Positions 6,061 through 61,754 of a stretch of 64,000 bases of DNA are shown here, in pieces. Made by a program: the position numbers and the translations under genes. Source of the DNA: a virus; the IMG/VR virus record IMGVR_UViG_3300027859_000006, positions 1 through 64,000 of that record. One strand, written 5' to 3'. A model generated the notes under the pieces. The model was not told the DNA's origin. It did not search any database and was given only the letters and a program-made list of their open reading frames with translations. Position 1 is the stretch's first letter, and each line of letters begins with the position of its first letter.

Positions 6061-6729
6061 ATGGCTAGAGCTAAACTTGATGTAACTCCAGAACAAATGG
6101 AGAGTGTAATCGCTTATTTGGAAACAGATAAGGCGACTAAAAAAGCTGCCTGTGAGATGCTTGGCATTGCGTATAATACTAAGCGTCTAGGTACGCTTAT
6201 CGAAGATTATCAGCAAGGTCTAGAGCGGGACAAGCGACTTCGCGCTAAAAAGCGTAAAGAACCAGTTACAAAAGCCGAAGTGGTAAATATCATCACAGAT
6301 TACTTGTCTGGTGATTCTTTAGCTGAACTATCAGATAACTACTACCGTAGTACAGCTATTCTTAAATACCATCTAGAAAAGCACGGTGCTCTTCTTAGAA
6401 CTAACGAGCGTGTAAACGAGCTTAACCCGCCTTTGTTACCTGATGAATGTATGGCGGATTCTTTTGAAAACGGACAATATGTATGGGTAGCCAAATATGG
6501 CTCGATTGGTATCGTTAAGGCAAAATTTAAAAATGCGTATCGTGTTAAAGTAATCAACGAGTCAATGAACCAGTATTGTTATCAGCCTCCAGAAGAGCTT
6601 GGGTCGCTCGAGCACTTGATAGAGCTTGGAGTGGATGTTAAGGGACTTATTAAGTCTGCAATGTCCGATGATGATATTTTGATAAAAGTTAACGAGGGTG
6701 TAAAAAATGCCAACAAGCGAACTAGATAA
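6061..6729 (+). CDS. Putative DNA-binding protein with helix-turn-helix segments
   Basis: 222 residues. The N-terminal 50 residues look like a helix-turn-helix (KATKKAACEMLGIAYNTKRL), followed by a basic linker (RDKRLRAKKRKEPVTKAE) and a second segment with the same flavour (SGDSLAELSDNYYRSTAILK). The C-terminal half is mixed alpha/beta (QYVWVAKYGSIGIVKAKF). A DNA-binding regulator or coactivator is likely, but no named family fits. It overlaps the next gene by 23 bp. Confidence 0.55.
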   Translation: MARAKLDVTPEQMESVIAYLETDKATKKAACEMLGIAYNTKRLGTLIEDYQQGLERDKRLRAKKRKEPVTKAEVVNIITDYLSGDSLAELSDNYYRSTAILKYHLEKHGALLRTNERVNELNPPLLPDECMADSFENGQYVWVAKYGSIGIVKAKFKNAYRVKVINESMNQYCYQPPEELGSLEHLIELGVDVKGLIKSAMSDDDILIKVNEGVKNANKRTR

Positions 6730-9139: not shown

Positions 9140-10094
9140 AACTGCTTCTGAAGCCTACTACGATGGAAACCCAATCCTTACTAATGAGCAATACGACACA
9201 TTAGAACGTATGTACGGACAAACTATCTCTGGTAACGGAGACACACCTCACGCATTTAGAATGTACTCACTTCAAAAGTGCTACGACATGCAGGATGCCC
9301 CACTAAGCATCGAAAGATGTACCAAAACTCCAAAGCTAGACGGAGCTGCTATTTCATTATTATACGTCCAAGGAAATTATACATTGTCTCTTACTAGAGG
9401 TGATGGATTTAAGGGACGCGATATAACAGATAAAATCCGACAGCTTGTTCCGCATAAGATCGAAACCGACAAGGATTTAGTACAAATTACTGGAGAAGTA
9501 GTTTGTAGTCACACTATGCCTAATGCGCGGAATTACGTATCTGGAGCTTTAAACCTTAAAGACTTCGACGAGTACTCTAGCAAGGTTGTAGAAGGATCTA
9601 TTGAATTTGTTGCCTACTCTGTACAAACCTCGGAATCTTCTATTGGTATTACTACTTCATATCCGGATGACATGAAGTTCTTATACCGAAACGGATTTTT
9701 GCCTGTAACTGAACTACAGATAGAAGATGGTTTAGCCTCTGCTTATGGAACAGCAAGCTTTCTAACAGACGGAATTGTGTACAGACTATCTAGTAACGCT
9801 CAATTCAAAGCGCATGGCTTTACCTCTAAGTTTCCAAAAGGAGCTTTTGCTTTCAAGGAGAATGCTGAGGCTGTGGAGACTACTCTTTTAGACGTAGTTT
9901 GGCAGACTGGAAAAAGCGGCAAGGTTTCTCCAGTGGCGATTCTAGAACCTGTTATGGTAGGGGATGCGAAAGTATCTCGCGCTACTCTTAACAATATAGA
10001 ATTTATAAAGGCGCTAGACTTAGAAATAGGATGCAAGGTAGGCATTGTTCGCAGCGGTGAAATTATACCTTGTGTAGTTTCCCGTATTGATTAG
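9123..10094 (+). CDS. NAD-dependent DNA ligase, adenylation subunit
   Basis: 323 residues. Domain Ia is visible at the N-terminus (AYYDGNPILTNEQYD, the NAD-binding region). The active-site lysine is K71 in TPKLDGAA, with the downstream nucleotidyltransferase strands (LTRGDGFKGRDIT, ITGEVV) and the OB domain towards the end (VSPVAILEPVMVG). The zinc finger, HhH and BRCT domains are absent and are encoded by the separate gene at 10,232, so together they make a two-subunit ligase, as in T5 (LigA/LigB). It should seal nicks in phage DNA. It overlaps the PC4-like gene. Confidence in function is high. Confidence 0.9.
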   Translation: MKELLKTASEAYYDGNPILTNEQYDTLERMYGQTISGNGDTPHAFRMYSLQKCYDMQDAPLSIERCTKTPKLDGAAISLLYVQGNYTLSLTRGDGFKGRDITDKIRQLVPHKIETDKDLVQITGEVVCSHTMPNARNYVSGALNLKDFDEYSSKVVEGSIEFVAYSVQTSESSIGITTSYPDDMKFLYRNGFLPVTELQIEDGLASAYGTASFLTDGIVYRLSSNAQFKAHGFTSKFPKGAFAFKENAEAVETTLLDVVWQTGKSGKVSPVAILEPVMVGDAKVSRATLNNIEFIKALDLEIGCKVGIVRSGEIIPCVVSRID

Positions 10095-10124
10095 AGTACA
10101 CGGTGATATAAATCAAAAAATCAC

Positions 10125-10153
10125 TTGTAATTTTTGACAAACGTGTATATAAT
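10125..10153 (+). promoter_or_regulatory. Sigma-70 promoter between ligase halves
   Basis: TTGTAA at 10,125-10,130, 17-bp spacer, TATAAT at 10,148-10,153. It has the same AAAAAATCACTTG upstream context as the promoter at 2106. It gives the second ligase subunit and the abundant-looking Myb-like gene their own transcript. Confidence 0.7.
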
Positions 10154-53140: not shown

Positions 53141-53329
53141 AATGCAATTTGCCCAGTGTTACACGTACGGGTATGGCCTGTACCAAGCCATTGAAGACGT
53201 GTCTGGAAACCGCCCTGTATAGTGTTTTGAGTAATATGCTAATTTTCTAAGTGTTACACGCGTCTAGTAGAATCAGCGCTGTATAGTGTTTCTATCAATA
53301 TGCTAATTTTCTAAGTGTTACACACGTCT
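53141..53329. repeat. Tandem 51-bp direct repeats with a third partial copy
   Basis: 53,215-53,265 and 53,279-53,329 share CTGTATAGTGTT, then AATATGCTAATTTTCTAAGT GTTACAC and (C/A)CGTCT, differing only in a short middle stretch and one base; the period is 64 bp. A degenerate third copy (AATGCAATTT...AGTGTTACACG) is at 53,141-53,168. No ORF is present. They lie between the pre-early-like module and the virion block. They could be binding sites for the small Myb-like proteins or part of a packaging or transfer signal. Confidence 0.75.
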
Positions 53330-53350
53330 GGGGGCGACCCCGTATCTAAA

Positions 53351-53365
53351 TGAGAATAAGTCTCA
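53351..53365. promoter_or_regulatory. Fur-box-like palindrome 1
   Basis: TGAGAATAAGTCTCA fits the 7-1-7 Fur box (TGATAATnATTATCA) at 11 of 14 defined positions by hand count. It sits between the 51-bp repeats and a 10-bp stem-loop. Confidence 0.45.
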
Positions 53366-53385
53366 TTACCGCCCCCTATGGGTAT

Positions 53386-53413
53386 GGGATCACATACCTT
53401 AGCATGTGATCCC
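53386..53413. other. 10-bp perfect stem-loop
   Basis: GGGATCACAT pairs with ATGTGATCCC around an 8-nt loop. It lies 7 bp beyond the stop of the leftward 53,421 gene. It lacks a U-tract on the minus strand, so it is either a factor-assisted terminator or a stabilising 3' hairpin. Confidence 0.55.
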
Positions 53414-53420
53414 GATCCAA

Positions 53421-53804
53421 TTACTCGGTGTCGTCATCCGATCCGCTTTCTAGATCATCGATGATCGCCGCTTGTTGCTCAACAAATGCCGCTAGCGCTT
53501 CAAGTTCTCCCTTGTTCGCCTTTTCCAAGCTGTCAACCGTTAGACCTGTTGTTTCAGCGATTTGCTTAACAACTTCGATTTTACGCGTTGCGCTTGGGTT
53601 GCCCACCTTTGCCTTAGCTTCTGGCGAGATGTATTCGCCCATGCTAACCAACTTCTGACGCGCGCTGTGTTCTGTTACGTCAGAGTCGTATGCAAGCGCT
53701 TTAAACGCTGCCGGTTCAAGCGCCTTGCCACCATTAGCTTTGATAGCTGCCGCGTATGCTGTGCTTAACTTCGCTGTGTTTTCTTCTGTCCAAACTTTAG
53801 CCAT
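53421..53804 (-). CDS. Small DNA-binding protein (Myb/SANT-like; T5 A2-like by position)
   Basis: 127 residues. It opens with VWTEENTAKLSTAYAA, then SARQKLVSMGEYISP, the two-helix pattern shared with the 8133, 10,998 and 61,443 proteins; the GEY(I/V)(S/K)P piece is shared almost exactly with 61,443. The C-terminus is acidic. It has AAGGAGATC before the ATG. Order HAD phosphatase, metallophosphoesterase, small DNA-binding protein matches the T5 pre-early trio (dmp, A1, A2), where A2 is a DNA-binding protein of similar size needed for second-step DNA transfer. The function is inferred; codon use is more GC-rich than in the replication block. Confidence 0.6.
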   Translation of the reverse strand: MAKVWTEENTAKLSTAYAAAIKANGGKALEPAAFKALAYDSDVTEHSARQKLVSMGEYISPEAKAKVGNPSATRKIEVVKQIAETTGLTVDSLEKANKGELEALAAFVEQQAAIIDDLESGSDDDTE

Positions 53805-53848
53805 GATTTGATCTCCTTAGATCGTAAATTAAATGTTGGTTTGTGTTT

Positions 53849-53872
53849 GCGGTCGTATTTTGCCCCGACCGC
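53849..53872. other. Intergenic hairpin
   Basis: GCGGTCG pairs with CGACCGC around a 10-nt loop, between the A1-like gene and the small DNA-binding protein gene. There is no U-tract. It may process or partly terminate the transcript, so that the downstream gene is made at a different level. Confidence 0.5.
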
Positions 53873-53899
53873 TTGAGCATTAAAACAAATTAAGAACGG

Positions 53900-55561
53900 T
53901 TATGCAACAACTTTTTGCGGGTTCAAGGTGATTAATTGTACCTGTCCGTTGCTGTATTCCATCATGTGACCGTGATCCCACGATGACGCGCCCCCACGGT
54001 TATAGCCTTGATTTAGTCGAGCGGTAACGCCTGTAGTAAACACTGAGCCTATTATGCATGGGCTGTGGGTGTGTCCTGTTATTAGGTTTAAATTCCAGTC
54101 TTTGAACTGATTTGGGTTTCCTGCGCTCCCGTTTGCGCCCTTGTGCCCATGCTGCGAATAATCGAATTTAAGCGGCTTAAAAGGCTTATCCATTCGACCA
54201 AAATGCACATTATTGGGTAACTCTGGCAATGTGGTTAGATCGGCATTTTCTAAGGCGATCTGTAACGCGTTTTTCTCATGTTCACCTTGGTCTAAGGTAT
54301 CGCACACTAACCAATTTAACAGATAGTATAATTTGCTGTTATGGCTGTCCTGCTTGGGATTAACGCTACTATCATCCAGCCAATTGTCGAGCGCTGAGTT
54401 GTGATTGCTCTCGGTGATCGATACGGTATCAACTATGGTAGATAATTCGGTTAACTGTACGATTACCTGTTTAAGGTCGTTCTCAACGCTTTCATGTCGA
54501 TTTGCGTACAAGTGCTTCCCACTGTTACGGTTATGGTGAGACCTTGTGCTAAAGTGTAAAATATCGTCAACTGCGATCACACTTGGTTTAACTTTGTCAA
54601 GAAAGTCCATTGTCTTTTGCCAATATGCATGATCGTAAACTTCACAATGTAGATCACCAAGTTTTCCGGCTTCTGGTAATTTACCGTAATAATATTCGAG
54701 TTCAGGTAACACCACATTCAATGATCCGTCATCGCCTTGAAAAACGTTGGTAACGTTATAACCACCGTCACACTTGTAAACGATCATGGCTGCCTGTTTA
54801 TGGTCTTTTTCCGCTTCTGCTCCTGCGCGACTTCTGGTGTAGTTGTACGCTGTGCAGCTACCAGTAGTGACAGCCTTTGTAATTGATTGATCGTTAAGTC
54901 GTGGTAGCGTTTTGTACTGCTGCTTGGGGCTTGCTACTACCGTGATTAGTTCACCACTATTCAGCTTGGCCGCTGCATTAATAGGCAATTTGTTAGTTGG
55001 TAAAACTGCTGCGGTGCTAGCGATCAAACAGGCGTTTTTCTCGAATAGCCAACAATCGTCAAGCTGTAAAAACGGCGTGACCTTAGGGTTAAATACTTCG
55101 GCTTCGGTCTCTACCGCTGGACTAAAGGCGTTTTTGTTATAGTAAACGGGCATTACCATTAAACGCGCATCTAGTAGGCTTGCTCTCATATCATCGATCA
55201 TAGCAAGAAGTTGATCCTCAAAGCCTGTGGTAATAGTGTTATTTTGTGCGCTTGTAATTACGAAAACATCACCGTCTAGAACTGGCAATAAATCGCGCTG
55301 TGATTGAGTGTAACCAACTTGTGTATCTGCCGCTGGTTTAGTCGCTGCACTTGGCTTTTTCGCTTTCTCAGCCTCTCTCAGGCTCTTTAGATGCTCAACA
55401 ACTAGCGGCATTAAAATAGCTGCATCGCCTTTAAGATCAAGGTTATGGATCGCATCCTCAACAACTTCCAAGCGTGAATCACGTTTACGCTTACCTAAAA
55501 GGTTATTTTCCTCGCACTCTGCGCAAAGTAGATCAAAGTTTTTATCGTTTAAATGTTTCAT
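53900..55561 (-). CDS. Metallophosphoesterase, T5 A1-like pre-early protein
   Basis: 553 residues, close to T5 A1 (about 556). The C-terminal half shows the full metallophosphoesterase order: LGDLHCEVYD (D303, H305), VIAVDDILHF (D332/D333) with SHHN (341-344), TESNHN (N386, H387), HGHKG (H471/H473) and ITGHTHSP (496-499). The N-terminal 300 residues have no clear motif apart from a Lys/Ala-rich linker near 65-80. T5 A1 is needed for host DNA breakdown and for completing DNA entry; a nuclease or phosphatase of the Mre11/SbcD class would fit. Metal-binding motifs are seen; the A1 link is inferred from length, order and neighbours. It is distinct from the SbcD-like gene at 20,266. Confidence 0.65.
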   Translation of the reverse strand: MKHLNDKNFDLLCAECEENNLLGKRKRDSRLEVVEDAIHNLDLKGDAAILMPLVVEHLKSLREAEKAKKPSAATKPAADTQVGYTQSQRDLLPVLDGDVFVITSAQNNTITTGFEDQLLAMIDDMRASLLDARLMVMPVYYNKNAFSPAVETEAEVFNPKVTPFLQLDDCWLFEKNACLIASTAAVLPTNKLPINAAAKLNSGELITVVASPKQQYKTLPRLNDQSITKAVTTGSCTAYNYTRSRAGAEAEKDHKQAAMIVYKCDGGYNVTNVFQGDDGSLNVVLPELEYYYGKLPEAGKLGDLHCEVYDHAYWQKTMDFLDKVKPSVIAVDDILHFSTRSHHNRNSGKHLYANRHESVENDLKQVIVQLTELSTIVDTVSITESNHNSALDNWLDDSSVNPKQDSHNSKLYYLLNWLVCDTLDQGEHEKNALQIALENADLTTLPELPNNVHFGRMDKPFKPLKFDYSQHGHKGANGSAGNPNQFKDWNLNLITGHTHSPCIIGSVFTTGVTARLNQGYNRGGASSWDHGHMMEYSNGQVQLITLNPQKVVA

Positions 55562-55626
55562 AAATAACGGTTTCCCTATTAAGGTTTTTTAAGGATCTAT
55601 GAAGATCCCGTTACGAGTTGATCAAA

Positions 55627-56142
55627 TTAATGACCGTGAAAAGGAACGTGAATTGCTTTCATGTTCAGGCGCTGTGCCATTTGGCAGTTTGCTAGATTAT
55701 CATCGACCAAAAATGATCGCGACAATTCAGCCGATGAAAATGCGCGTGTTAGGTGGTACTCTTTTAATTCAAAATCTCGTCTACGATCATTTTCGCCCTC
55801 TCTGGAAAAGATTGCGGTCGGTTTGATCCCGTTTTTACGCAACCACTTTTCAGAGTTCTTGCACATAACGCGAGCGGTACAAACAAAAAATGGTCTACCT
55901 GCATCAGTTAGGAACTGCGGCACTTCTGCCAGTGGCATGATCTGATCTTTAGCAATATTTGCAGCCGTTGAAAGTTTACGATACATTTCAAGGTTAAGCG
56001 ATCCGTCAGGGTGTATCGCTTGGCGGTGTGTAGCATCGATCACTACACCATCAAGATCAAAAATAGGTATAATGCTCTGATCCAATAGGATCGCATCAGT
56101 CATTTGAAGCGCTGCCGCTCTTGTATTTTGAATTGTTAACAT
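55627..56142 (-). CDS. HAD-type phosphatase (dmp-like by position)
   Basis: 171 residues. HAD motifs: I IFDLDGVVID (nucleophile and acid/base Asp), II FFVCTAR, a basic helix near KNSEKWLRKNG as motif III region, and IV FLVDDNLANC. The cap is small. GGGAG lies 8 bp before the ATG. It is first in the leftward operon with the A1-like and A2-like genes. In T5 this position holds dmp, the 5'-deoxyribonucleotidase that destroys host nucleotides; this protein is a plausible functional equivalent, or a polynucleotide 3'/5'-phosphatase. Confidence 0.65.
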   Translation of the reverse strand: MLTIQNTRAAALQMTDAILLDQSIIPIFDLDGVVIDATHRQAIHPDGSLNLEMYRKLSTAANIAKDQIMPLAEVPQFLTDAGRPFFVCTARVMCKNSEKWLRKNGIKPTAIFSREGENDRRRDFELKEYHLTRAFSSAELSRSFLVDDNLANCQMAQRLNMKAIHVPFHGH

Positions 56143-56216
56143 CTGGTTAACTCCCGTTTAAGGTATATAAAAATATACGGTTTTTGTTGGGGCTGCTTGC
56201 CTCTCAACTGTTACCC

Positions 56217-56244
56217 ATTATATAGACCAACAAACTTTTGTCTA
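56217..56244 (-). promoter_or_regulatory. Sigma-70 promoter for pre-early-like operon
   Basis: On the minus strand TAGACA (56,244-56,239), 16-bp spacer, TATAAT (56,222-56,217). The leader to the HAD gene is about 68 nt. Fur-like boxes 2 and 3 lie 80-150 bp upstream of it. Confidence 0.75.
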
Positions 56245-56323
56245 TATTAGTTTTTATACGTATGTATGAAATTATATACTTTTCATTTGCTCTGTTCTGT
56301 GCTACCCTACCAGCAAATGCAAA

Positions 56324-56392
56324 TGAGAACTATTCTCATCTGACCGGCTCCGCCAGGTCGGAACGACCAAACGCAAATGAGAATGATTCGCA
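56324..56392. promoter_or_regulatory. Fur-box-like palindromes 2 and 3
   Basis: TGAGAACTATTCTCA (56,324-56,338) and TGAGAATGATTCGCA (56,378-56,392), each 11 of 14 positions of the 7-1-7 Fur box by hand count. Box 3 continues into CAACCGCGCCGATTTT. The 36 bp from 56,375 to 56,410 recur exactly at 60,121-60,156. Confidence 0.55.
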
Positions 56393-56828
56393 TTCAACCG
56401 CGCCGATTTTGGGTCGCTTTCCCAGCTATGACTTATTATTGCATTTACGTGTAGCATTGTCTAGAACTAATTTATTATAAGAATGAATTTATTTAGGCGA
56501 TTTTGTTATATAGTGAATTGTGGCATTCTAGCAATTACTATGCCAACTCAAAAACCGTGCCAAAGTCGCAAATCGCGTATAAGCGGTCTAAATGGCTCTG
56601 TATTGAGAGCTGGATGCAAGCCAAGCAAGTGCATTGCTATACCGTAGAAGTCTTCTCATATTGCCATTGTGTAAGTTGTTGATTTTAAAGGGAAAAATAA
56701 TGCTTGACAAGCCGATGGCACGATTTTTTCTATTGCAAACGACGTGCCAACTTTTATTGGTCAATTTCACTACTTTTTAGTCAATTTCGCTTATGGCACG
56801 GACTTTGCTAGGTAAATACGAATGCAAA

Positions 56829-56843
56829 TGATAATGATTCGCA
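56829..56843. promoter_or_regulatory. Fur-box-like palindrome 4
   Basis: TGATAATGATTCGCA, 12 of 14 positions of the Fur box, the best match of the family. It is followed by TTTGACCGCGCCGA, so the GC-rich tail of the 36-bp repeat is kept. It lies 42 bp before the first DnaA-like box. Confidence 0.6.
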
Positions 56844-56884
56844 TTTGACCGCGCCGAAAAATGGCATGGAAGTTGCTAGGGAAG

Positions 56885-57031
56885 TTATCAACAGGTACGT
56901 GTGAGTAAGTGAAGTTATGCACAATACTGTATAAATGTACAAGCGCTCAGCGGACGCTGGTGGACTTATCCACAGAAAATTGTGGATAAATATACCTGTA
57001 TAGATATACAGTAGTTTTAAGTTGTGGGTAA
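56885..57031. promoter_or_regulatory. DnaA-box cluster
   Basis: Two perfect boxes in inverted order, TTATCCACA (56,966-56,974) and TGTGGATAA (56,981-56,989), 6 bp apart. Three near matches: TTATCAACA (56,885), TTATGCACA (56,915) and TGTGGGTAA (57,023). Five in 147 bp is far above chance. The stretch 56,987-57,016 between the last boxes is AT-rich and could unwind. Host DnaA binding here would fit an origin or a stop point for DNA entry. Confidence 0.7.
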
Positions 57032-57190
57032 CTCAAACGTACCATTTAAAGCTCCTGTAAGCCATTCTGACGGGTTTTTATGTGAGAGTAATACTAGGGC
57101 TTAGGTGGGATAGAATACCTAGTGAGTCCAGGCGAAGCCTGGTTATAAAAAACGGGTTTTCTAGAGCGAAAAGTTATTATAAAAAGGTAC

Positions 57191-57219
57191 TTTACAATTT
57201 TAGCCACCGCTACTATAAT
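57191..57219 (+). promoter_or_regulatory. Sigma-70 promoter
   Basis: TTTACA at 57,191-57,196, 17-bp spacer, TATAAT at 57,214-57,219. It drives the 57,272 gene through a leader that shares GAGGCAATA and AACGGGGTA blocks with the leader at 59,203. Confidence 0.75.
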
Positions 57220-57271
57220 GTATTTAAAGGTTGAGGCAATAAGGCAGCAACCAAAAACGGGGTATAAAAAT

Positions 57272-57637
57272 ATGAAATATTTCAATTTTGATGTTAATGC
57301 ATCTATTTCTGTAAAAGTTGAACTAATTCAACTAGTATCTAACTCTGAACTAGTTGCTCTACGCTTTTCACGTACCGAAGAAATTTTTGGTATTAAAGAA
57401 CTTGTAAGTGTAAAGCATGTTGCAGTGAGCAATGAAGAGGTGTACAGTACTAAGCTAGAATCCCTAGCTATTAAGGCATTTGGTACTAATAGTAAAATAT
57501 ACGCTACATTTTTAGTTGCAGGTAAAAACGAAAATGCTAACGAGCACTACTATAAACTTATGGAAATTCAAGAACTCCTACACGCATTAAAAACCAGACC
57601 TAATTTAAGACTTCGTAATATGGAAGTTACAAAATAA
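57272..57637 (+). CDS. Hypothetical protein
   Basis: 121 residues from ATG at 57,272; a longer frame from 57,218 would begin inside the promoter and is rejected. It is beta then alpha in character (NASISVKVELIQLVSNSELV; KLMEIQELLHALKTRPNL). The family is unknown. The first plus-strand gene after the repeat-dense region, with a strong promoter, so it is likely made very early. Confidence 0.6.
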   Translation: MKYFNFDVNASISVKVELIQLVSNSELVALRFSRTEEIFGIKELVSVKHVAVSNEEVYSTKLESLAIKAFGTNSKIYATFLVAGKNENANEHYYKLMEIQELLHALKTRPNLRLRNMEVTK

Positions 57638-57640
57638 TAT

Positions 57641-57674
57641 AAAAAAAAAGGTCTTGACTTTCTAGTTAAGACCT
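57641..57674 (-). terminator. Leftward terminator
   Basis: AGGTCTTGAC pairs with GTTAAGACCT (one G-U). Nine A on the left give nine U on the minus strand. It stops leftward transcripts, such as readthrough from the 60.4-61.3 kb genes, before the repeat region. For the plus-strand gene it is a hairpin without U-tract. Confidence 0.75.
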
Positions 57675-57767
57675 GCGCCGCGCGCCGTAGGCGCCAAAAT
57701 TATGACACATGCAAGCTACGTGCCACTACGCAAGATTACGTGTGTGGTCTGACCAGTGAAAAAGTTG

Positions 57768-57795
57768 TTGCGGTCTTAGCTGGTAGCTGTATAAT
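57768..57795 (+). promoter_or_regulatory. Sigma-70 promoter
   Basis: TTGCGG at 57,768-57,773, 16-bp spacer, TATAAT at 57,790-57,795. It lies 31 bp before the small membrane protein gene. Confidence 0.65.
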
Positions 57796-57826
57796 GATTA
57801 CATCAACTAGAGACAGGGAGACAGGG

Positions 57827-57967
57827 ATGAATGCATCTCATGTTATAGGCTTGCTATTTTTAGGCCTAGCCATTGCTACACTTTTTTCTAGAGAGCCACT
57901 AGCGGCTATACCAGTGGCTACTATAGGTGTGTTGCTAATGTTTGGCAACACTGAGAAACCAGTTTAA
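57827..57967 (+). CDS. Small membrane protein
   Basis: 46 residues. ATG follows GGGAGACAGG. Two hydrophobic segments (VIGLLFLGLAIATLF and LAAIPVATIGVLLMF) joined by SREP form a hairpin in the membrane. A longer frame from 57,740 would run through the promoter. It has its own promoter and terminator. Small early membrane proteins of phages often act in exclusion or membrane takeover; nothing more specific is visible. Confidence 0.6.
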   Translation: MNASHVIGLLFLGLAIATLFSREPLAAIPVATIGVLLMFGNTEKPV

Positions 57968-57991
57968 CCCCGTAGGCGATAACCGCCATTT

Positions 57992-58022
57992 TGCCCCGTC
58001 TATCTGGGCGGGGCATTTTTTA
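57992..58022 (+). terminator. Intrinsic terminator
   Basis: TGCCCCG (57,992-57,998) pairs with CGGGGCA (58,009-58,015), followed by seven T. Confidence 0.85.
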
Positions 58023-58033
58023 AGGGTAGTATA

Positions 58034-58225
58034 ATGGATAAAAAATTCGGCTGGTGTGGTGCTGGCTTAATGGTAATTTTTAGCTTTACCTTGTTGCCGA
58101 TTTTCGGTATACTAGGTCTGACGTTGCTTACAGTGCAAGCGGTTAGCACTAAGCAACATAACTTGACAGCTCTAAACACATTTAGTATACTAGGGCTGAT
58201 TTTAAACTCTACGGGAGTAATTTAA
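58034..58225 (+). CDS. Small membrane protein
   Basis: 63 residues with two long hydrophobic segments (GLMVIFSFTLLPIFGILGLT and FSILGLILNSTGVI) and a short polar loop (TKQHNLTAL). The start is 10 bp after AAGGG. The family is unknown. It is 1 bp ahead of the next gene, so co-translated. Together with the 57,827 protein it makes two small membrane proteins in a row. Confidence 0.6.
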   Translation: MDKKFGWCGAGLMVIFSFTLLPIFGILGLTLLTVQAVSTKQHNLTALNTFSILGLILNSTGVI

Positions 58226-58226
58226 T

Positions 58227-58625
58227 ATGTTTAAGCAATTCGCAGCAACACGTATTCTAGCTACAGCTATCGCTTCGGTTTTGGATTCTGGAAAGGATCT
58301 AAGTTGTGAAAATGTTGTTTCAGCTATGATGATCGAGGCAAGCAAAAACGAAATCCCTTACGCGGATTTAAAAACCTTTTGTGTTGACACGATTGTAGTG
58401 GCAACGAATACACCTACTACTCCAATCGTTGCAAACCTAGAGGAAATTGCACAAGCGGATGATCCTCTGATGCATTTAGCCAGTCGTATATTGAGCGATG
58501 AAAACATGGGAGCGCTACAGAAAAACCTAGAGGCTGAGCCTGATGAAGATGAGGAAGAAGGTTCACTACTTGATGTGATTCGTAGCTTGCGTGGCAATGT
58601 GCGCACGGAAAAGGATGTAAACTAG
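58227..58625 (+). CDS. Hypothetical acidic protein
   Basis: 132 residues. The N-terminal 60 residues are helical (TRILATAIASVLDSGKDLSC); the C-terminal part has an acidic run (EAEPDEDEEEG) and then a basic helix. The strongly acidic stretch could mimic DNA, but this is only a composition-based thought. The family is unknown. It starts 1 bp after the preceding stop. Confidence 0.55.
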   Translation: MFKQFAATRILATAIASVLDSGKDLSCENVVSAMMIEASKNEIPYADLKTFCVDTIVVATNTPTTPIVANLEEIAQADDPLMHLASRILSDENMGALQKNLEAEPDEDEEEGSLLDVIRSLRGNVRTEKDVN

Positions 58626-58636
58626 TAGAGGCAGCT

Positions 58637-58885
58637 ATGGCGAACACTGGCATTGAAAAGGGGTGTTCGCCTACACCCCTGAGAACAGTAAGCACAATTC
58701 GCAGAGAGATTCAAGCCCTAGAGCAAGAATATCTCAATTTACCTAGTATAATGGTAGCTAGTATAGTAGGGTACGATTATATAGATCGTATTAATGCGAA
58801 AAAATCAACTATTAATTTTCTCACTACCAGAATAAGACGCCGCAAGTTTTACAACTGGCTGAGAAAGAAAACAGGGTGCAAATGA
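58637..58885 (+). CDS. Hypothetical basic protein
   Basis: 82 residues. Helical, with a basic C-terminus (FLTTRIRRRKFYNWLRKKTG). The middle reads STIRREIQALEQEYLNLPSI, a short coiled coil. AGAGGCAGCTATGG gives a fair ribosome site. The family is unknown; nucleic-acid binding is possible from the charge. It overlaps the next gene by 4 bp (ATGA). Confidence 0.5.
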   Translation: MANTGIEKGCSPTPLRTVSTIRREIQALEQEYLNLPSIMVASIVGYDYIDRINAKKSTINFLTTRIRRRKFYNWLRKKTGCK

Positions 58886-59142
58886 TGAAACTAGAAGACA
58901 AACTAGAAGTGGTTAAAAAGTTAACTGACCTATTTAAACGTAACTACGGTACACAACAAAGTGTGGAGATACTCCAAGCGTTATTCGATGCAGAGGGTAG
59001 TGCGGAGGAGGATTTCGCGGTTGATGAACTACAACCCATTTTAGGGCTACACTTGAGCTATGTTTCTGAAAGCGATGAGACAGAGCAGAGCGACATTGAT
59101 ACTACCAGTTTATTATGTGAACTTTTTGCATACTGCACTTAG
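58882..59142 (+). CDS. Hypothetical acidic protein
   Basis: 86 residues from ATG at 58,882 (a second ATG follows at once; a GTG at 58,876 is also possible). Helical N-terminus (KLEVVKKLTDLFKRNYGTQQ) and an acidic rest (EGSAEEDFAVDELQ, SESDETEQSDIDTT). The basic-acidic contrast with its coupled upstream neighbour suggests the two may bind each other. The family is unknown. Confidence 0.5.
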   Translation: MMKLEDKLEVVKKLTDLFKRNYGTQQSVEILQALFDAEGSAEEDFAVDELQPILGLHLSYVSESDETEQSDIDTTSLLCELFAYCT

Positions 59143-59165
59143 TAAAATTAATTTCAAAAAAGCGC

Positions 59166-59193
59166 TTGCTTTTTTGTGTGCCCGTTGTATACT
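59166..59193 (+). promoter_or_regulatory. Sigma-70 promoter
   Basis: TTGCTT at 59,166-59,171, 16-bp spacer, TATACT at 59,188-59,193. It leads into the GAGGCAATA...AACGGGGTA leader shared with the 57,272 gene. Confidence 0.6.
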
Positions 59194-59244
59194 ATAAACA
59201 AGTCGAGGCAATACCGCCAAGACACTAATAACGGGGTAAAAAAT

Positions 59245-59697
59245 ATGAAAACTTCTTCTTTTGTGGCTGGTACTGTAGATTGCGTTTATCCTAGACCTGT
59301 AGAGGGTGACGACTTGGCAAAGGTGGCCGCTGCTCTAGACAGCATGGAGGAACTTTATACAGTTGAGCTATCGCTGGATAACTCTTTTGATAGTGAGGGA
59401 GAGTACCTAGTGCCTCTATTGGCAGGGTTTGACCTGAATAATGACTACCGTGCAGAGGGCAGACTAAACAAGTCTTTCCGTGATTATAAAGACCGTAGCA
59501 AGGGCTTTGCGTTCGTAGGCAAAATGGAGGTGCAGCCTCGCTACCTACCACAAGCAGAATTTTGGTTCAATACTACTAGAGAACCTAGCACATGGGGGGA
59601 GGCTTTGCAAGCTACCGTAGAGCGGATCAAAGAACACGACGGAAGAGGCACTTTAGTAGTAAAAGCCCGTCGCGAAATTTTTAAAATAGCTATCTAA
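59245..59697 (+). CDS. Hypothetical protein
   Basis: 150 residues from ATG at 59,245; the longer frame from 59,176 begins between the -35 and -10 boxes and is rejected. Beta and loop-rich, with two similar glycine/aspartate-rich pieces (DSEGEYLVPLLAGFDLNNDY; FVGKMEVQPRYLPQAEFWFN). The family is unknown. The leader is shared with 57,272, so the two are probably co-regulated. Confidence 0.6.
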   Translation: MKTSSFVAGTVDCVYPRPVEGDDLAKVAAALDSMEELYTVELSLDNSFDSEGEYLVPLLAGFDLNNDYRAEGRLNKSFRDYKDRSKGFAFVGKMEVQPRYLPQAEFWFNTTREPSTWGEALQATVERIKEHDGRGTLVVKARREIFKIAI

Positions 59698-59742
59698 TCA
59701 ATAATAGGGGCGCAAGCCCCCCAATACTTACAACTGGAGAAA

Positions 59743-59796
59743 ATGAAGATGAAATTTAAAAAAGCTATGAAAATTGTAAAAAAGCTTGACAGCTAA
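59743..59796 (+). CDS. 17-residue basic micropeptide
   Basis: ATGAAGATGAAATTTAAAAA and on to TAA at 59,794-59,796. Seven of 17 residues are Lys. CTGGAG lies 5 bp before the ATG. A GGGGC-GCAA-GCCCC hairpin (59,707-59,720) lies just upstream, and the next gene starts 2 bp after the stop. It may be a leader peptide that couples translation to the 59,799 gene, or a real micropeptide. Confidence 0.4.
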   Translation: MKMKFKKAMKIVKKLDS

Positions 59797-59798
59797 GC

Positions 59799-59981
59799 AT
59801 GAAAGCAAAAATAACTATGCTAGAGGAATTAACAGGCATAGAGGATGGTGAAACTCTGACCAAAGAAATACTAGCGCAGGGTGTAACTCTTGAAAACGTC
59901 GCCTTAGCTAATTCAGCCGCCAACAAACATACGTTTACTTGGACAAAAGACGACGTAGAAAGGATGCGACCTTATATGTAA
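59799..59981 (+). CDS. Small acidic helical protein
   Basis: 60 residues (MLEELTGIEDGETLTKEILA; WTKDDVERMRPYM). The last 15 residues look like one short helix after a Trp. No own ribosome site is clear, so it probably depends on the micropeptide frame upstream. The family is unknown. A strong terminator follows. Confidence 0.5.
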   Translation: MKAKITMLEELTGIEDGETLTKEILAQGVTLENVALANSAANKHTFTWTKDDVERMRPYM

Positions 59982-59995
59982 ACTAAAGTGAATAA

Positions 59996-60022
59996 AAAGT
60001 GCATATTTATGCACTTTTTTGC
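59996..60022 (+). terminator. Intrinsic terminator
   Basis: AAGTGCAT pairs with ATGCACTT around ATTT (8-bp stem), followed by TTTT. It closes the 59,245-59,981 transcript. Confidence 0.85.
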
Positions 60023-60123
60023 ATAACCGCGCCGCTCCGGCACACGGATTCCCACCTATACAGTATAACAGGTCTACACGTCAACGCAAGCACTTTTTAA
60101 CTGGTCAGACCACGTAATCTAAA

Positions 60124-60237
60124 TGAGAATGATTCGCATTCAACCGCGCCGATTTTACCATACCCTGACACAAAAAACAAGTCTACATGCAAATGATTCG
60201 TATTTAACTTTTTGAATCTAAATGCAAATGATTCGCA
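60124..60237. promoter_or_regulatory. Fur-box-like palindromes 5, 6 and 7
   Basis: TGAGAATGATTCGCA (60,124-60,138; 11 of 14) begins a 36-bp exact copy of the repeat at 56,375. TGCAAATGATTCGTA (60,188-60,202) and TGCAAATGATTCGCA (60,223-60,237) are weaker, about 9-10 of 14. The surrounding 60,023-60,394 has no gene apart from a decayed copy of the 60,395 gene. Confidence 0.5.
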
Positions 60238-60319
60238 TTCGCAAAGTAACCTTATTTTTCGACAAATAAATTTACCGAAAAATCGGGGGTTTACCCCTGT
60301 CCGGGAGCGCAGCGACCTG

Positions 60320-60358
60320 CGCCAGAGTACGATTTCGACTAGTACTAAACCGACCGCT
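60320..60358 (-). pseudogene. Decayed duplicate fragment of the 60,395 gene
   Basis: 60,320-60,358 matches 60,489-60,526, inside the 77-residue gene, over about 38 bp (CGCCAGAGTACGATT...TAGTACTA.ACCGACCGC), with a 1-nt deletion that breaks the frame. A third short match (GAGTACTAATCCGAC) lies at 60,381. It points to an old tandem duplication. Confidence 0.5.
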
Positions 60359-60394
60359 GCCCCTACGTGTGAGCTACCCTGAGTACTAATCCGA

Positions 60395-60659: not shown

Positions 60660-60688
60660 ATTATATAAGGTTTATAGCGGAAAAGCAA
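60660..60688 (-). promoter_or_regulatory. Sigma-70 promoter
   Basis: On the minus strand TTGCTT (60,688-60,683), 17-bp spacer, TATAAT (60,665-60,660). It is embedded in the last codons of the Bro-N gene and drives the 77-residue gene. Confidence 0.65.
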
Positions 60689-61329
60689 GGGATTTCTTGG
60701 CTTATTTTGGGCTTTTCAGGGAATCTTATATCAGGCTTAAATGCGTACCATTTACCATCTAGAGTATAAGAATTATGATACTTTGCGCAATATATAGTGT
60801 CAAAGTTATATATACCCTCATCTTCTACATACTCCCAGAACTCAGCTAAAGACCATCCGGCCGGTTTGACCTCCGAAGGAGGGAGGTAGCCGAGAACCCT
60901 GTAGGCGTTGTTGTCTATTAAAAATTGTTCAGTCTTGTCACCCACCAGCGCCTCTATTTCAGAGTACAAATCCGGTGACAGTTTATTTTTAGTCAGTACC
61001 TCTGTAGCAGCAAGTCTCTTTAAAGCGGCTACCCCTGTTTTTCTAACTAGAGGTAGGATCTCGGAACAGACGTAAAGCTGCCATTCTCTTGCTGTTGGCA
61101 TATCAGATCGCATTAAAAAGAAGTAAAGAACCTGCTCAGCATACAATTTACGTCCGTCGGAGCACGGTGCACTCTCGATACGTAAATCAGCATTACGCTT
61201 AAGAAAATCTCGTATTGCTCGCTTAGGCTCTGAGTAACCTAGCTTCTCTGCAAATTCTTCAAGGTCAAAATAAAATTCGTTGTTTATCTCGTAGAGTGAG
61301 ACACCCTTTTCTAAGTTTAGTATATTCAT
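60661..61329 (-). CDS. Bro-N domain protein (antirepressor-like)
   Basis: 222 residues. The N-terminal 110 residues follow the Bro-N pattern: FDLEEFAEKLGYSEPKRAIR, then KLYAEQVLYFFLMRSDMPTA, then WQLYVCSEILPLVRKTG. The rest is specific (PAGWSLAEFWEYVEDEG). Bro-N proteins occur in phages as DNA-binding antirepressors. The promoter leaves almost no leader: the -10 box ends 8 bp before the ATG and no Shine-Dalgarno sequence is seen, so the mRNA is probably leaderless. It is divergent from the Myb-like gene at 61,443 across 113 bp, the layout of a regulatory switch. Confidence 0.75.
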   Translation of the reverse strand: MNILNLEKGVSLYEINNEFYFDLEEFAEKLGYSEPKRAIRDFLKRNADLRIESAPCSDGRKLYAEQVLYFFLMRSDMPTAREWQLYVCSEILPLVRKTGVAALKRLAATEVLTKNKLSPDLYSEIEALVGDKTEQFLIDNNAYRVLGYLPPSEVKPAGWSLAEFWEYVEDEGIYNFDTIYCAKYHNSYTLDGKWYAFKPDIRFPEKPKISQEIPCFSAINLI

Positions 61330-61442: not shown

Positions 61443-61754
61443 ATGTGGAACGAACAAAAATCTGCTCAACTAGTTAAGACTTACAAAACTAACGGCTACG
61501 ATGCTGCGCAAGCGGCGAAGGCGCTTGGAGTATCGGAACGCTCTGCTATCTCTAAGCTGGTGGCTCTAGGAGAGTATGTTAAGCCTGTTAAGGTACAAGC
61601 TTCCACGGGGCGCATTAATAAAACTCAGTACATTTCTGCGGTCGAGGCAATGCTAGGAGTCAAGTCTGGTAAACTAGCGGGTCTCTCTGGGGCTAGTGCT
61701 AATGCGATAGAAGAATTAGCGGCTGCTCTTGTAAAACTAGGAGACCGTGCATAA
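61443..61754 (+). CDS. Small Myb/SANT-like DNA-binding protein
   Basis: 103 residues. MWNEQKSAQLVKTYKTNGYD, then AAKALGVSERSAISKLVALG and EYVKPVK: a tryptophan helix and a second helix with the SERSAxSKL pattern, closest to the 53,421 protein. The C-terminal half is Ala/Gly-rich and helical. GAGGAAGAACGAATATG gives a good start. Likely DNA-binding, perhaps controlling its own divergent promoter pair with the Bro-N gene. It is coupled to the next gene (TAATG). Confidence 0.65.
   Translation: MWNEQKSAQLVKTYKTNGYDAAQAAKALGVSERSAISKLVALGEYVKPVKVQASTGRINKTQYISAVEAMLGVKSGKLAGLSGASANAIEELAAALVKLGDRA

What the first reader, a model, noticed from the sequence alone, without database searches (positions are those of the whole stretch)
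53351..60237. Family of dispersed Fur-box-like palindromes around the pre-early-like module
Seen: seven palindromes resembling the 7-1-7 Fur box (9-12 of 14 positions by hand count), two of them inside a 36-bp sequence that is identical at 56,375-56,410 and 60,121-60,156; most carry a shared CGCGCCGA tail. Known: Fur represses siderophore receptors, which several phages use for entry (T5 uses FhuA). Inference: early injected DNA could bind and titrate host Fur, or use iron status to time expression. Alternatively, they are operators of a phage regulator that happens to share the half-site.
Basis: partly seen in the sequence, partly recalled or inferred. Interest (0 to 1): 0.75.

Follow-up and report, generated by a model that had tools for sequence, protein, structure and literature searches.

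The report
Host-repressor boxes on T5-like phage DNA
The first stretch of DNA that this T5-like virus pushes into a bacterium carries real-looking docking sites for the host's own iron regulator Fur, next to sites for the host proteins LexA and DnaA, and the same trio sits in phage T5 exactly where DNA entry is known to pause, which suggests a testable answer to why it pauses.

Summary
Seven palindromes lie at the stated places; six score 17.9-23.1 bits with a Fur matrix learned only from nine E. coli Fur promoters. The best score elsewhere in the 108 kb genome is 12.5 bits or less, and the maximum over 40 shuffled genomes is 17.3. A matrix made from four window sites in turn finds E. coli Fur promoters. 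The CGCGCCGA tail is on 3 of 7, not most.

The region is a T5-like pre-early (first-step-transfer) region with A1 and A2 homologues. The feature is not peculiar to this phage. In 16 T5-like genomes, Fur-consensus matches lie in or next to the terminal-repeat/pre-early region. In T5 and relatives they form arrays with a 35-bp period inside the annotated injection stop signal. LexA and DnaA boxes are confined to the same regions; 13 other regulator motifs are mostly at background.

Best reading: host Fur, with LexA and DnaA, binds the incoming DNA and forms the injection stop signal. Fur binding is very likely; the roadblock role is inferred. Titration is improbable. No site overlaps a predicted promoter, so classical repression is not favoured. 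I found no report of Fur or LexA boxes in T5, but key subscription papers were not held.

The parts
53348..53368 (+). Fur-box-like palindrome AAATGAGAATAAGTCTCATTA at the A2 side of the module; probably a terminal-repeat boundary element
   Evidence: 19.7 bits; close counterparts 29 bp from the end of Vibrio phage phi 3 and at the matching edge in JSF10, Ceto and pVp-1
53421..53804 (-). A2-family DNA-binding protein gene
   Evidence: phrog_1725, 1.9e-16
53900..55561 (-). A1 DNA-transfer protein gene
   Evidence: phrog_1745, 5e-130; 47% identical to A1 of Vibrio phage phi 3
55627..56142 (-). HAD/polynucleotide-kinase-like phosphatase gene, possibly the counterpart of dmp
   Evidence: phrog_415, 1.9e-20
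56217..56244 (-). predicted leftward pre-early promoter TAGACA-16-TATAAT
   Evidence: 11 of 12, largely conserved in L009 and L010
56321..56341 (+). Fur box AAATGAGAACTATTCTCATCT
   Evidence: 19.2 bits; orthologues keep 22.4 and 19.0 bits despite 3-4 changes
56375..56395 (+). Fur box AAATGAGAATGATTCGCATTC, start of 36-bp repeat 56375-56410 with tail ACCGCGCCGA
   Evidence: 21.0 bits; same 21-mer upstream of feoAB in a bacterial genome
56826..56846 (+). Fur box AAATGATAATGATTCGCATTT, with tail
   Evidence: 23.1 bits, best in genome
56966..56974 (+). DnaA box TTATCCACA
   Evidence: conserved in L009 and L010
56981..56989 (-). DnaA box TTATCCACA (inverted partner)
56994..57013 (+). LexA (SOS) box ACCTGTATAGATATACAGTA, CTGT-N8-ACAG
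   Evidence: identical in L009/G001
59982..60394 (.). non-coding stretch in the position of the T5 injection stop signal (after the rightward pre-early genes)
   Evidence: gene order compared with AY543070
60121..60141 (+). Fur box AAATGAGAATGATTCGCATTC, start of second 36-bp repeat 60121-60156
   Evidence: 21.0 bits
60185..60205 (+). weak Fur-like palindrome ACATGCAAATGATTCGTATTT, first of a 35-bp-spaced pair
   Evidence: 11.9 bits; 35-bp spacing as in the T5 array
60220..60240 (+). Fur box AAATGCAAATGATTCGCATTC, second of the 35-bp-spaced pair
   Evidence: 17.9 bits

Best explanation
These are operator sites for the host's Fur protein, carried on the first-step-transfer DNA of a T5-like phage together with LexA and DnaA boxes. 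As the leading end enters the cell, abundant host DNA-binding proteins occupy the array and build a nucleoprotein barrier: the injection stop signal that halts DNA entry until A1 and A2 are made. Shown here: Fur-grade sequence, confinement to the terminal-repeat/pre-early region, conservation across T5-like phages, and co-location with LexA and DnaA boxes inside the annotated T5 injection stop signal. Inferred: actual Fur binding (about 0.85) and the barrier role (about 0.35).
For: E. coli-derived Fur matrix scores of 17.9-23.1 bits for six window sites, like real E. coli boxes (12.5-25.5); the reciprocal scan recovers fhuE, fecI, fhuF, fepA/fes, cirA and fhuA promoters. In 16 T5-like genomes the <=3-mismatch Fur-consensus sites lie in or beside the terminal-repeat/pre-early region; in the five with annotated repeats, 19 of 20 distinct sites are inside and the 20th is about 70-90 bp outside. 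T5 array 9551-9710 (25.2, 20.3, 18.5 bits) lies in the annotated injection stop signal 9140-10149, left of the major nick 9748; Klebsiella JIPh_Kp127 has five boxes at exact 35-bp steps. Substitutions between orthologues keep the Fur score (sum 181 vs 115 +/- 9 expected, 0 of 20,000). LexA boxes show the same confinement, DnaA boxes nearly so. Specificity: Fur 50 observed vs 0.2 expected, LexA 13 vs 0.0, DnaA 26 vs 0.6; most of 13 other regulators near background. A 2026 paper says host components may physically block transfer at the ISS (PMC13250531).
Against: No binding or infection data. Arrays vary: phi 3, JSF10 and 234P7B have no strong Fur array in the stop region, and Serratia phage Slocum has only weak boxes, so Fur cannot be an obligatory part of the stop in all T5-like phages. 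The terminal-repeat ends of this phage are inferred from gene order only. The boundary site 53348 may be a packaging element instead. The host of this phage is unknown.
Confidence: 0.45

Rival explanations
1. Host Fur (and LexA, DnaA) binds these sites to control pre-early or iss-proximal transcription, so that infection timing follows iron and DNA-damage status; binding is real but the role is transcriptional.
For: Three Fur boxes, two DnaA boxes and the LexA box lie in the divergent promoter region 56142-57218; T5 has its own set at 6097-6232 between its divergent promoters.
Against: No site overlaps a promoter-like hexamer pair scoring 10 of 12 or better; distances 40-634 bp. The strongest, most conserved arrays lie behind the last pre-early gene, away from any promoter.
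Confidence: 0.3
2. The palindromes are sites of a conserved phage protein (A1/A2 or terminase) and resemble Fur boxes by convergence.
For: Confined to T5-like first-step DNA that also encodes A1 and A2; the boundary element 53348 is conserved at the DNA end, with a related right half (AGTCTNNTNACC) in T5 and Slocum that lack the palindrome.
Against: Match to E. coli Fur boxes in both directions; the same 21-mer in front of feoAB and in unrelated phages near terS/terL; A1-carrying Slocum and 234P7B nearly lack strong sites; no phage Fur.
Confidence: 0.13
3. Decoy: the sites titrate host Fur and derepress iron genes.
For: Multiple high-scoring sites, doubled by the two terminal repeats in T5.
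Against: About 6-12 sites against thousands of Fur molecules per cell (general knowledge); no reason then for a 35-bp period in the stop signal or for adjoining LexA and DnaA boxes.
Confidence: 0.05
4. Chance palindromes of AT-rich non-coding DNA.
For: The region is non-coding and repeat-rich.
Against: Shuffles of the same stretches give 0.2 sites against 50 observed; reversed-motif control 0 vs 64 in viral contigs.
Confidence: 0.01

Closest known systems
Injection stop signal (iss) of bacteriophage T5, AY543070 9140-10149
   Same: Non-coding, after the rightward pre-early genes, with palindromes; carries Fur boxes with the same 35-bp spacing
   Different: Known descriptions name repeats, palindromes and DnaA boxes, not Fur or LexA (PMC13250531). 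In this phage half of the Fur boxes, and the DnaA and LexA boxes, are in the divergent promoter region.
Gammaproteobacterial Fur boxes (E. coli fhuF, fecI, fepA/fes, fhuA)
   Same: Same 21-bp palindrome, same allowed variants, 6-bp-shifted overlapping boxes
   Different: Not over promoters of iron genes; repeated on phage DNA
E. coli LexA (SOS) box
   Same: CTGT-N8-ACAG within TACTGTATAAATATACAGTA in T5
   Different: In phage terminal repeats, not at SOS genes
Site-specific nick consensus of T5 R/GCGCRGG
   Same: The reverse complement of the ACCGCGCC tail is GGCGCGGT, 7 of 8 positions (PMC3517423)
   Different: One mismatch; not spread through the genome as T5 nicks are, so not identified as a nick site

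Membership tests
Fur box | 7-1-7 / 19-21-bp palindrome scoring with a Fur matrix from known operators | tested here: met
   6 of 7 sites 17.9-23.1 bits; 60185 fails alone at 11.9
Fur box | selection preserving the motif | tested here: met
   score kept over 23 substitutions
Fur box | binding by Fur with metal | not testable with these tools
   needs gel shift or ChIP
Fur box | overlap with a promoter (classical repression) | tested here: not met
   nearest promoter-like pair (10 of 12 or better) 40-634 bp away
T5-like pre-early / first-step-transfer region | A1 and A2 genes in a leftward block, with rightward small genes after a divergent promoter region | tested here: met
   (order of dmp/A1/A2 within the leftward block differs)
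T5-like pre-early / first-step-transfer region | long terminal repeat present at both ends | not testable with these tools
   assembly shows a single copy; no read coverage
T5 injection stop signal | non-coding stretch after rightward pre-early genes with palindromes | tested here: met
   59982-60394 with 60121, 60185, 60220
T5 injection stop signal | DnaA boxes within it | tested here: not met
   DnaA boxes here lie at 56966/56981, not in 59982-60394
LexA box | CTGT-N8-ACAG in TACTGTATATATATACAGTA context | tested here: met
   56994-57013, 3 mismatches to consensus
Phage-encoded Fur regulon | phage carries a Fur gene | tested here: not met
   PF01475 absent in 8 phages

The most novel reading that the evidence does not exclude
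The long-sought stop of T5 DNA injection is a landing array for ordinary host repressors (Fur, LexA, DnaA): the phage uses the host's own regulators as a physical clamp on its incoming DNA, and A1/A2 release it. Iron limitation or SOS induction would then change DNA entry itself, not only transcription.
Probability: 0.3. Interest if true: 0.92.

Novelty: new variant of a known kind. Interest (0 to 1): 0.82.

Why it matters
How T5 stops injecting after about 8% of its genome has been open for decades. Identifying the palindromes in the stop region as Fur and LexA boxes gives named host proteins to remove, so the question becomes testable with existing K-12 mutants and wild-type T5. It would also link iron and SOS status to phage DNA entry. 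Fur boxes next to LexA boxes also appear in unrelated aquatic phages, so the theme may be wider.

Tried and rejected
Phage DNA search with the 14-kb stretch gave no nucleotide relative. The bacterial genome scan with the exact 21-mer gave only 2 hits, too few for a statistic; one is in front of feoAB, the other (L077) matches no Pfam model and is unexplained. The reading of the tail as a T5 nick site is one mismatch off and not genome-wide: left open. The E. coli genome could not be searched as a whole, and class-wide searches could not be centred on L076, so seven E. coli stretches were used instead. Titration was rejected on stoichiometry. Other regulators (PurR, ArgR, CRP, FNR, Zur, NagC and others) are mostly not enriched; MetJ 4 vs 0.1, mainly in Ceto, and CRP 1 vs 0.0 are single-phage hits. 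Full text of the classic T5 iss papers was not found and the 2015 pre-early review was not held, so prior notice of Fur or LexA boxes there cannot be excluded.

Full report
Observation. The window is part of a 108,151-bp IMG/VR record. PHROG matches (portal, head protein, terminase, origin-binding protein, tape measure) and A1/A2 show a T5-like phage; its A1 is at most 47% identical to named phages, closest Vibrio phage phi 3. No comparable site exists elsewhere in the record.

Are they Fur boxes? I learned a 21-bp matrix from nine E. coli promoters long known to be Fur-regulated, without phage data. E. coli's own boxes score 12.5-25.5 bits; six window sites score 17.9-23.1. Apart from the overlapping shifted frame 56820 (12.5) and 60185 (11.9), the next best place in 108 kb is 11.3, and the maximum of 40 shuffled genomes is 17.3. 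In reverse, a matrix from four window sites, run over about 84 kb of E. coli, has the fhuE, fecI and fhuF promoters as its top three, and fepA/fes, cirA, fhuA and fepB/entC among its top dozen. The exact window 21-mer occurs twice in the bacterial genome collection; one place is directly upstream of feoAB, a standard Fur target. Between this phage and two relatives (L009, L010; 93% and 91% identical on the late side), 23 substitutions inside orthologous sites almost all swap one Fur-acceptable base for another.

Not only this phage. A palindromic Fur consensus at <=3 mismatches was searched in 16 T5-like genomes. In the five with annotated terminal repeats, 19 of 20 distinct sites are in the repeat (7-11% of the genome) and the last is within 90 bp of it; in the others the sites lie in the pre-early stretch or at its edge, judged from gene position or, for pVp-1 and INF11, from homology of the sites. 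T5 itself has boxes at 9551, 9655 and 9690 (18.5, 25.2, 20.3 bits), inside the feature annotated as injection stop signal (9140-10149) and just before the major nick at 9748. Salmonella and Klebsiella relatives have two to five boxes there, with starts 35 bp apart in most. The window pair 60185/60220 has the same 35-bp step, in the non-coding stretch after the rightward pre-early genes, the position of the stop signal.

Company. The same repeats carry LexA boxes (T5 9409 TACTGTATAAATATACAGTA, one mismatch from consensus; window 56994-57013), found in all ten genomes tested and in no place outside the terminal-repeat/pre-early regions, and DnaA boxes with almost the same confinement. DnaA boxes and palindromes in the stop signal are known (PMC13250531); Fur and LexA I did not find named in the papers held. 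As a specificity control, 13 other regulator consensuses were run over ten such stretches: most are at background, with 4 MetJ hits (0.1 expected), mainly in Ceto; Fur is 50 vs 0.2 expected, LexA 13 vs 0.0, DnaA 26 vs 0.6.

Who binds? No Fur family protein is encoded by eight of these phages, so the host's Fur is the natural ligand. A phage protein such as A2 cannot be excluded, but Slocum and 234P7B keep A1 and largely lack strong boxes, and unrelated aquatic phages carry the identical 21-mer between early genes and terS/terL, half of them with a LexA-type box within 150 bp (32 of 63; about 0.5 expected).

What for? Seven sites, none on a promoter; the best-conserved arrays have no gene behind them. 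This argues against simple repression and, with the small number of sites, against titration. The stop signal is thought to involve structure or host components that block transfer. A cluster of high-affinity sites for abundant host proteins is a plausible block, to be undone by A1/A2. This last step is inference; transcriptional use is the main rival. The boundary site 53348 is a separate class: its relatives sit at or near the very end of the repeat in Vibrio phages and, in saus176N, just outside it, and it may serve packaging.

Verdict. Observation confirmed; Fur reading supported; function proposed and testable in K-12 with T5.

Noticed in passing
L011-L074 (viral contigs), e.g. L014 4164-4184: About 60 viral contigs from other phages carry the exact 21-mer, mostly between early genes and terS (phrog_1482)/terL, 32 of 63 with a LexA-type box within 150 bp and several with a DnaA box. 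Fur and LexA boxes near the packaging genes may be a wider phage feature.
   Followed up: partly
window 61443-61754 and 53421-53804: Two A2-family (phrog_1725) genes in one pre-early region, the second with a helix-turn-helix-like stretch.
   Followed up: no
window 60661-61329: Anti-repressor (Ant)-like gene next to the stop-signal-like stretch of a presumably virulent phage.
   Followed up: no
window 56397, 56848, 60026, 60143: ACCGCGCC occurs four times in 108 kb, all on the + strand and all in this region; its complement is one base off the T5 nick consensus.
   Followed up: partly
L078 about 9525-9545 and T5-like iss alignments: A second conserved element, AGTGTTTCTCACTT, stands between the DnaA box and the Fur array in all aligned stop signals; its binder is unknown.
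   Followed up: no
window 53206-53329: Two 60-bp direct repeats (87% identical) ending in AAGTGTTACACRCGTCT just outside the presumed repeat end.
   Followed up: no
window 57744-57772 and 60085-60113: 29-nt inverted repeat (90%) flanking the rightward pre-early genes; T5 likewise has its DnaA/LexA/Fur sets in opposite order on the two sides.
   Followed up: no
L123 8-2781: A relative with A1 64% identical and Fur boxes at 37-bp steps.
   Followed up: no
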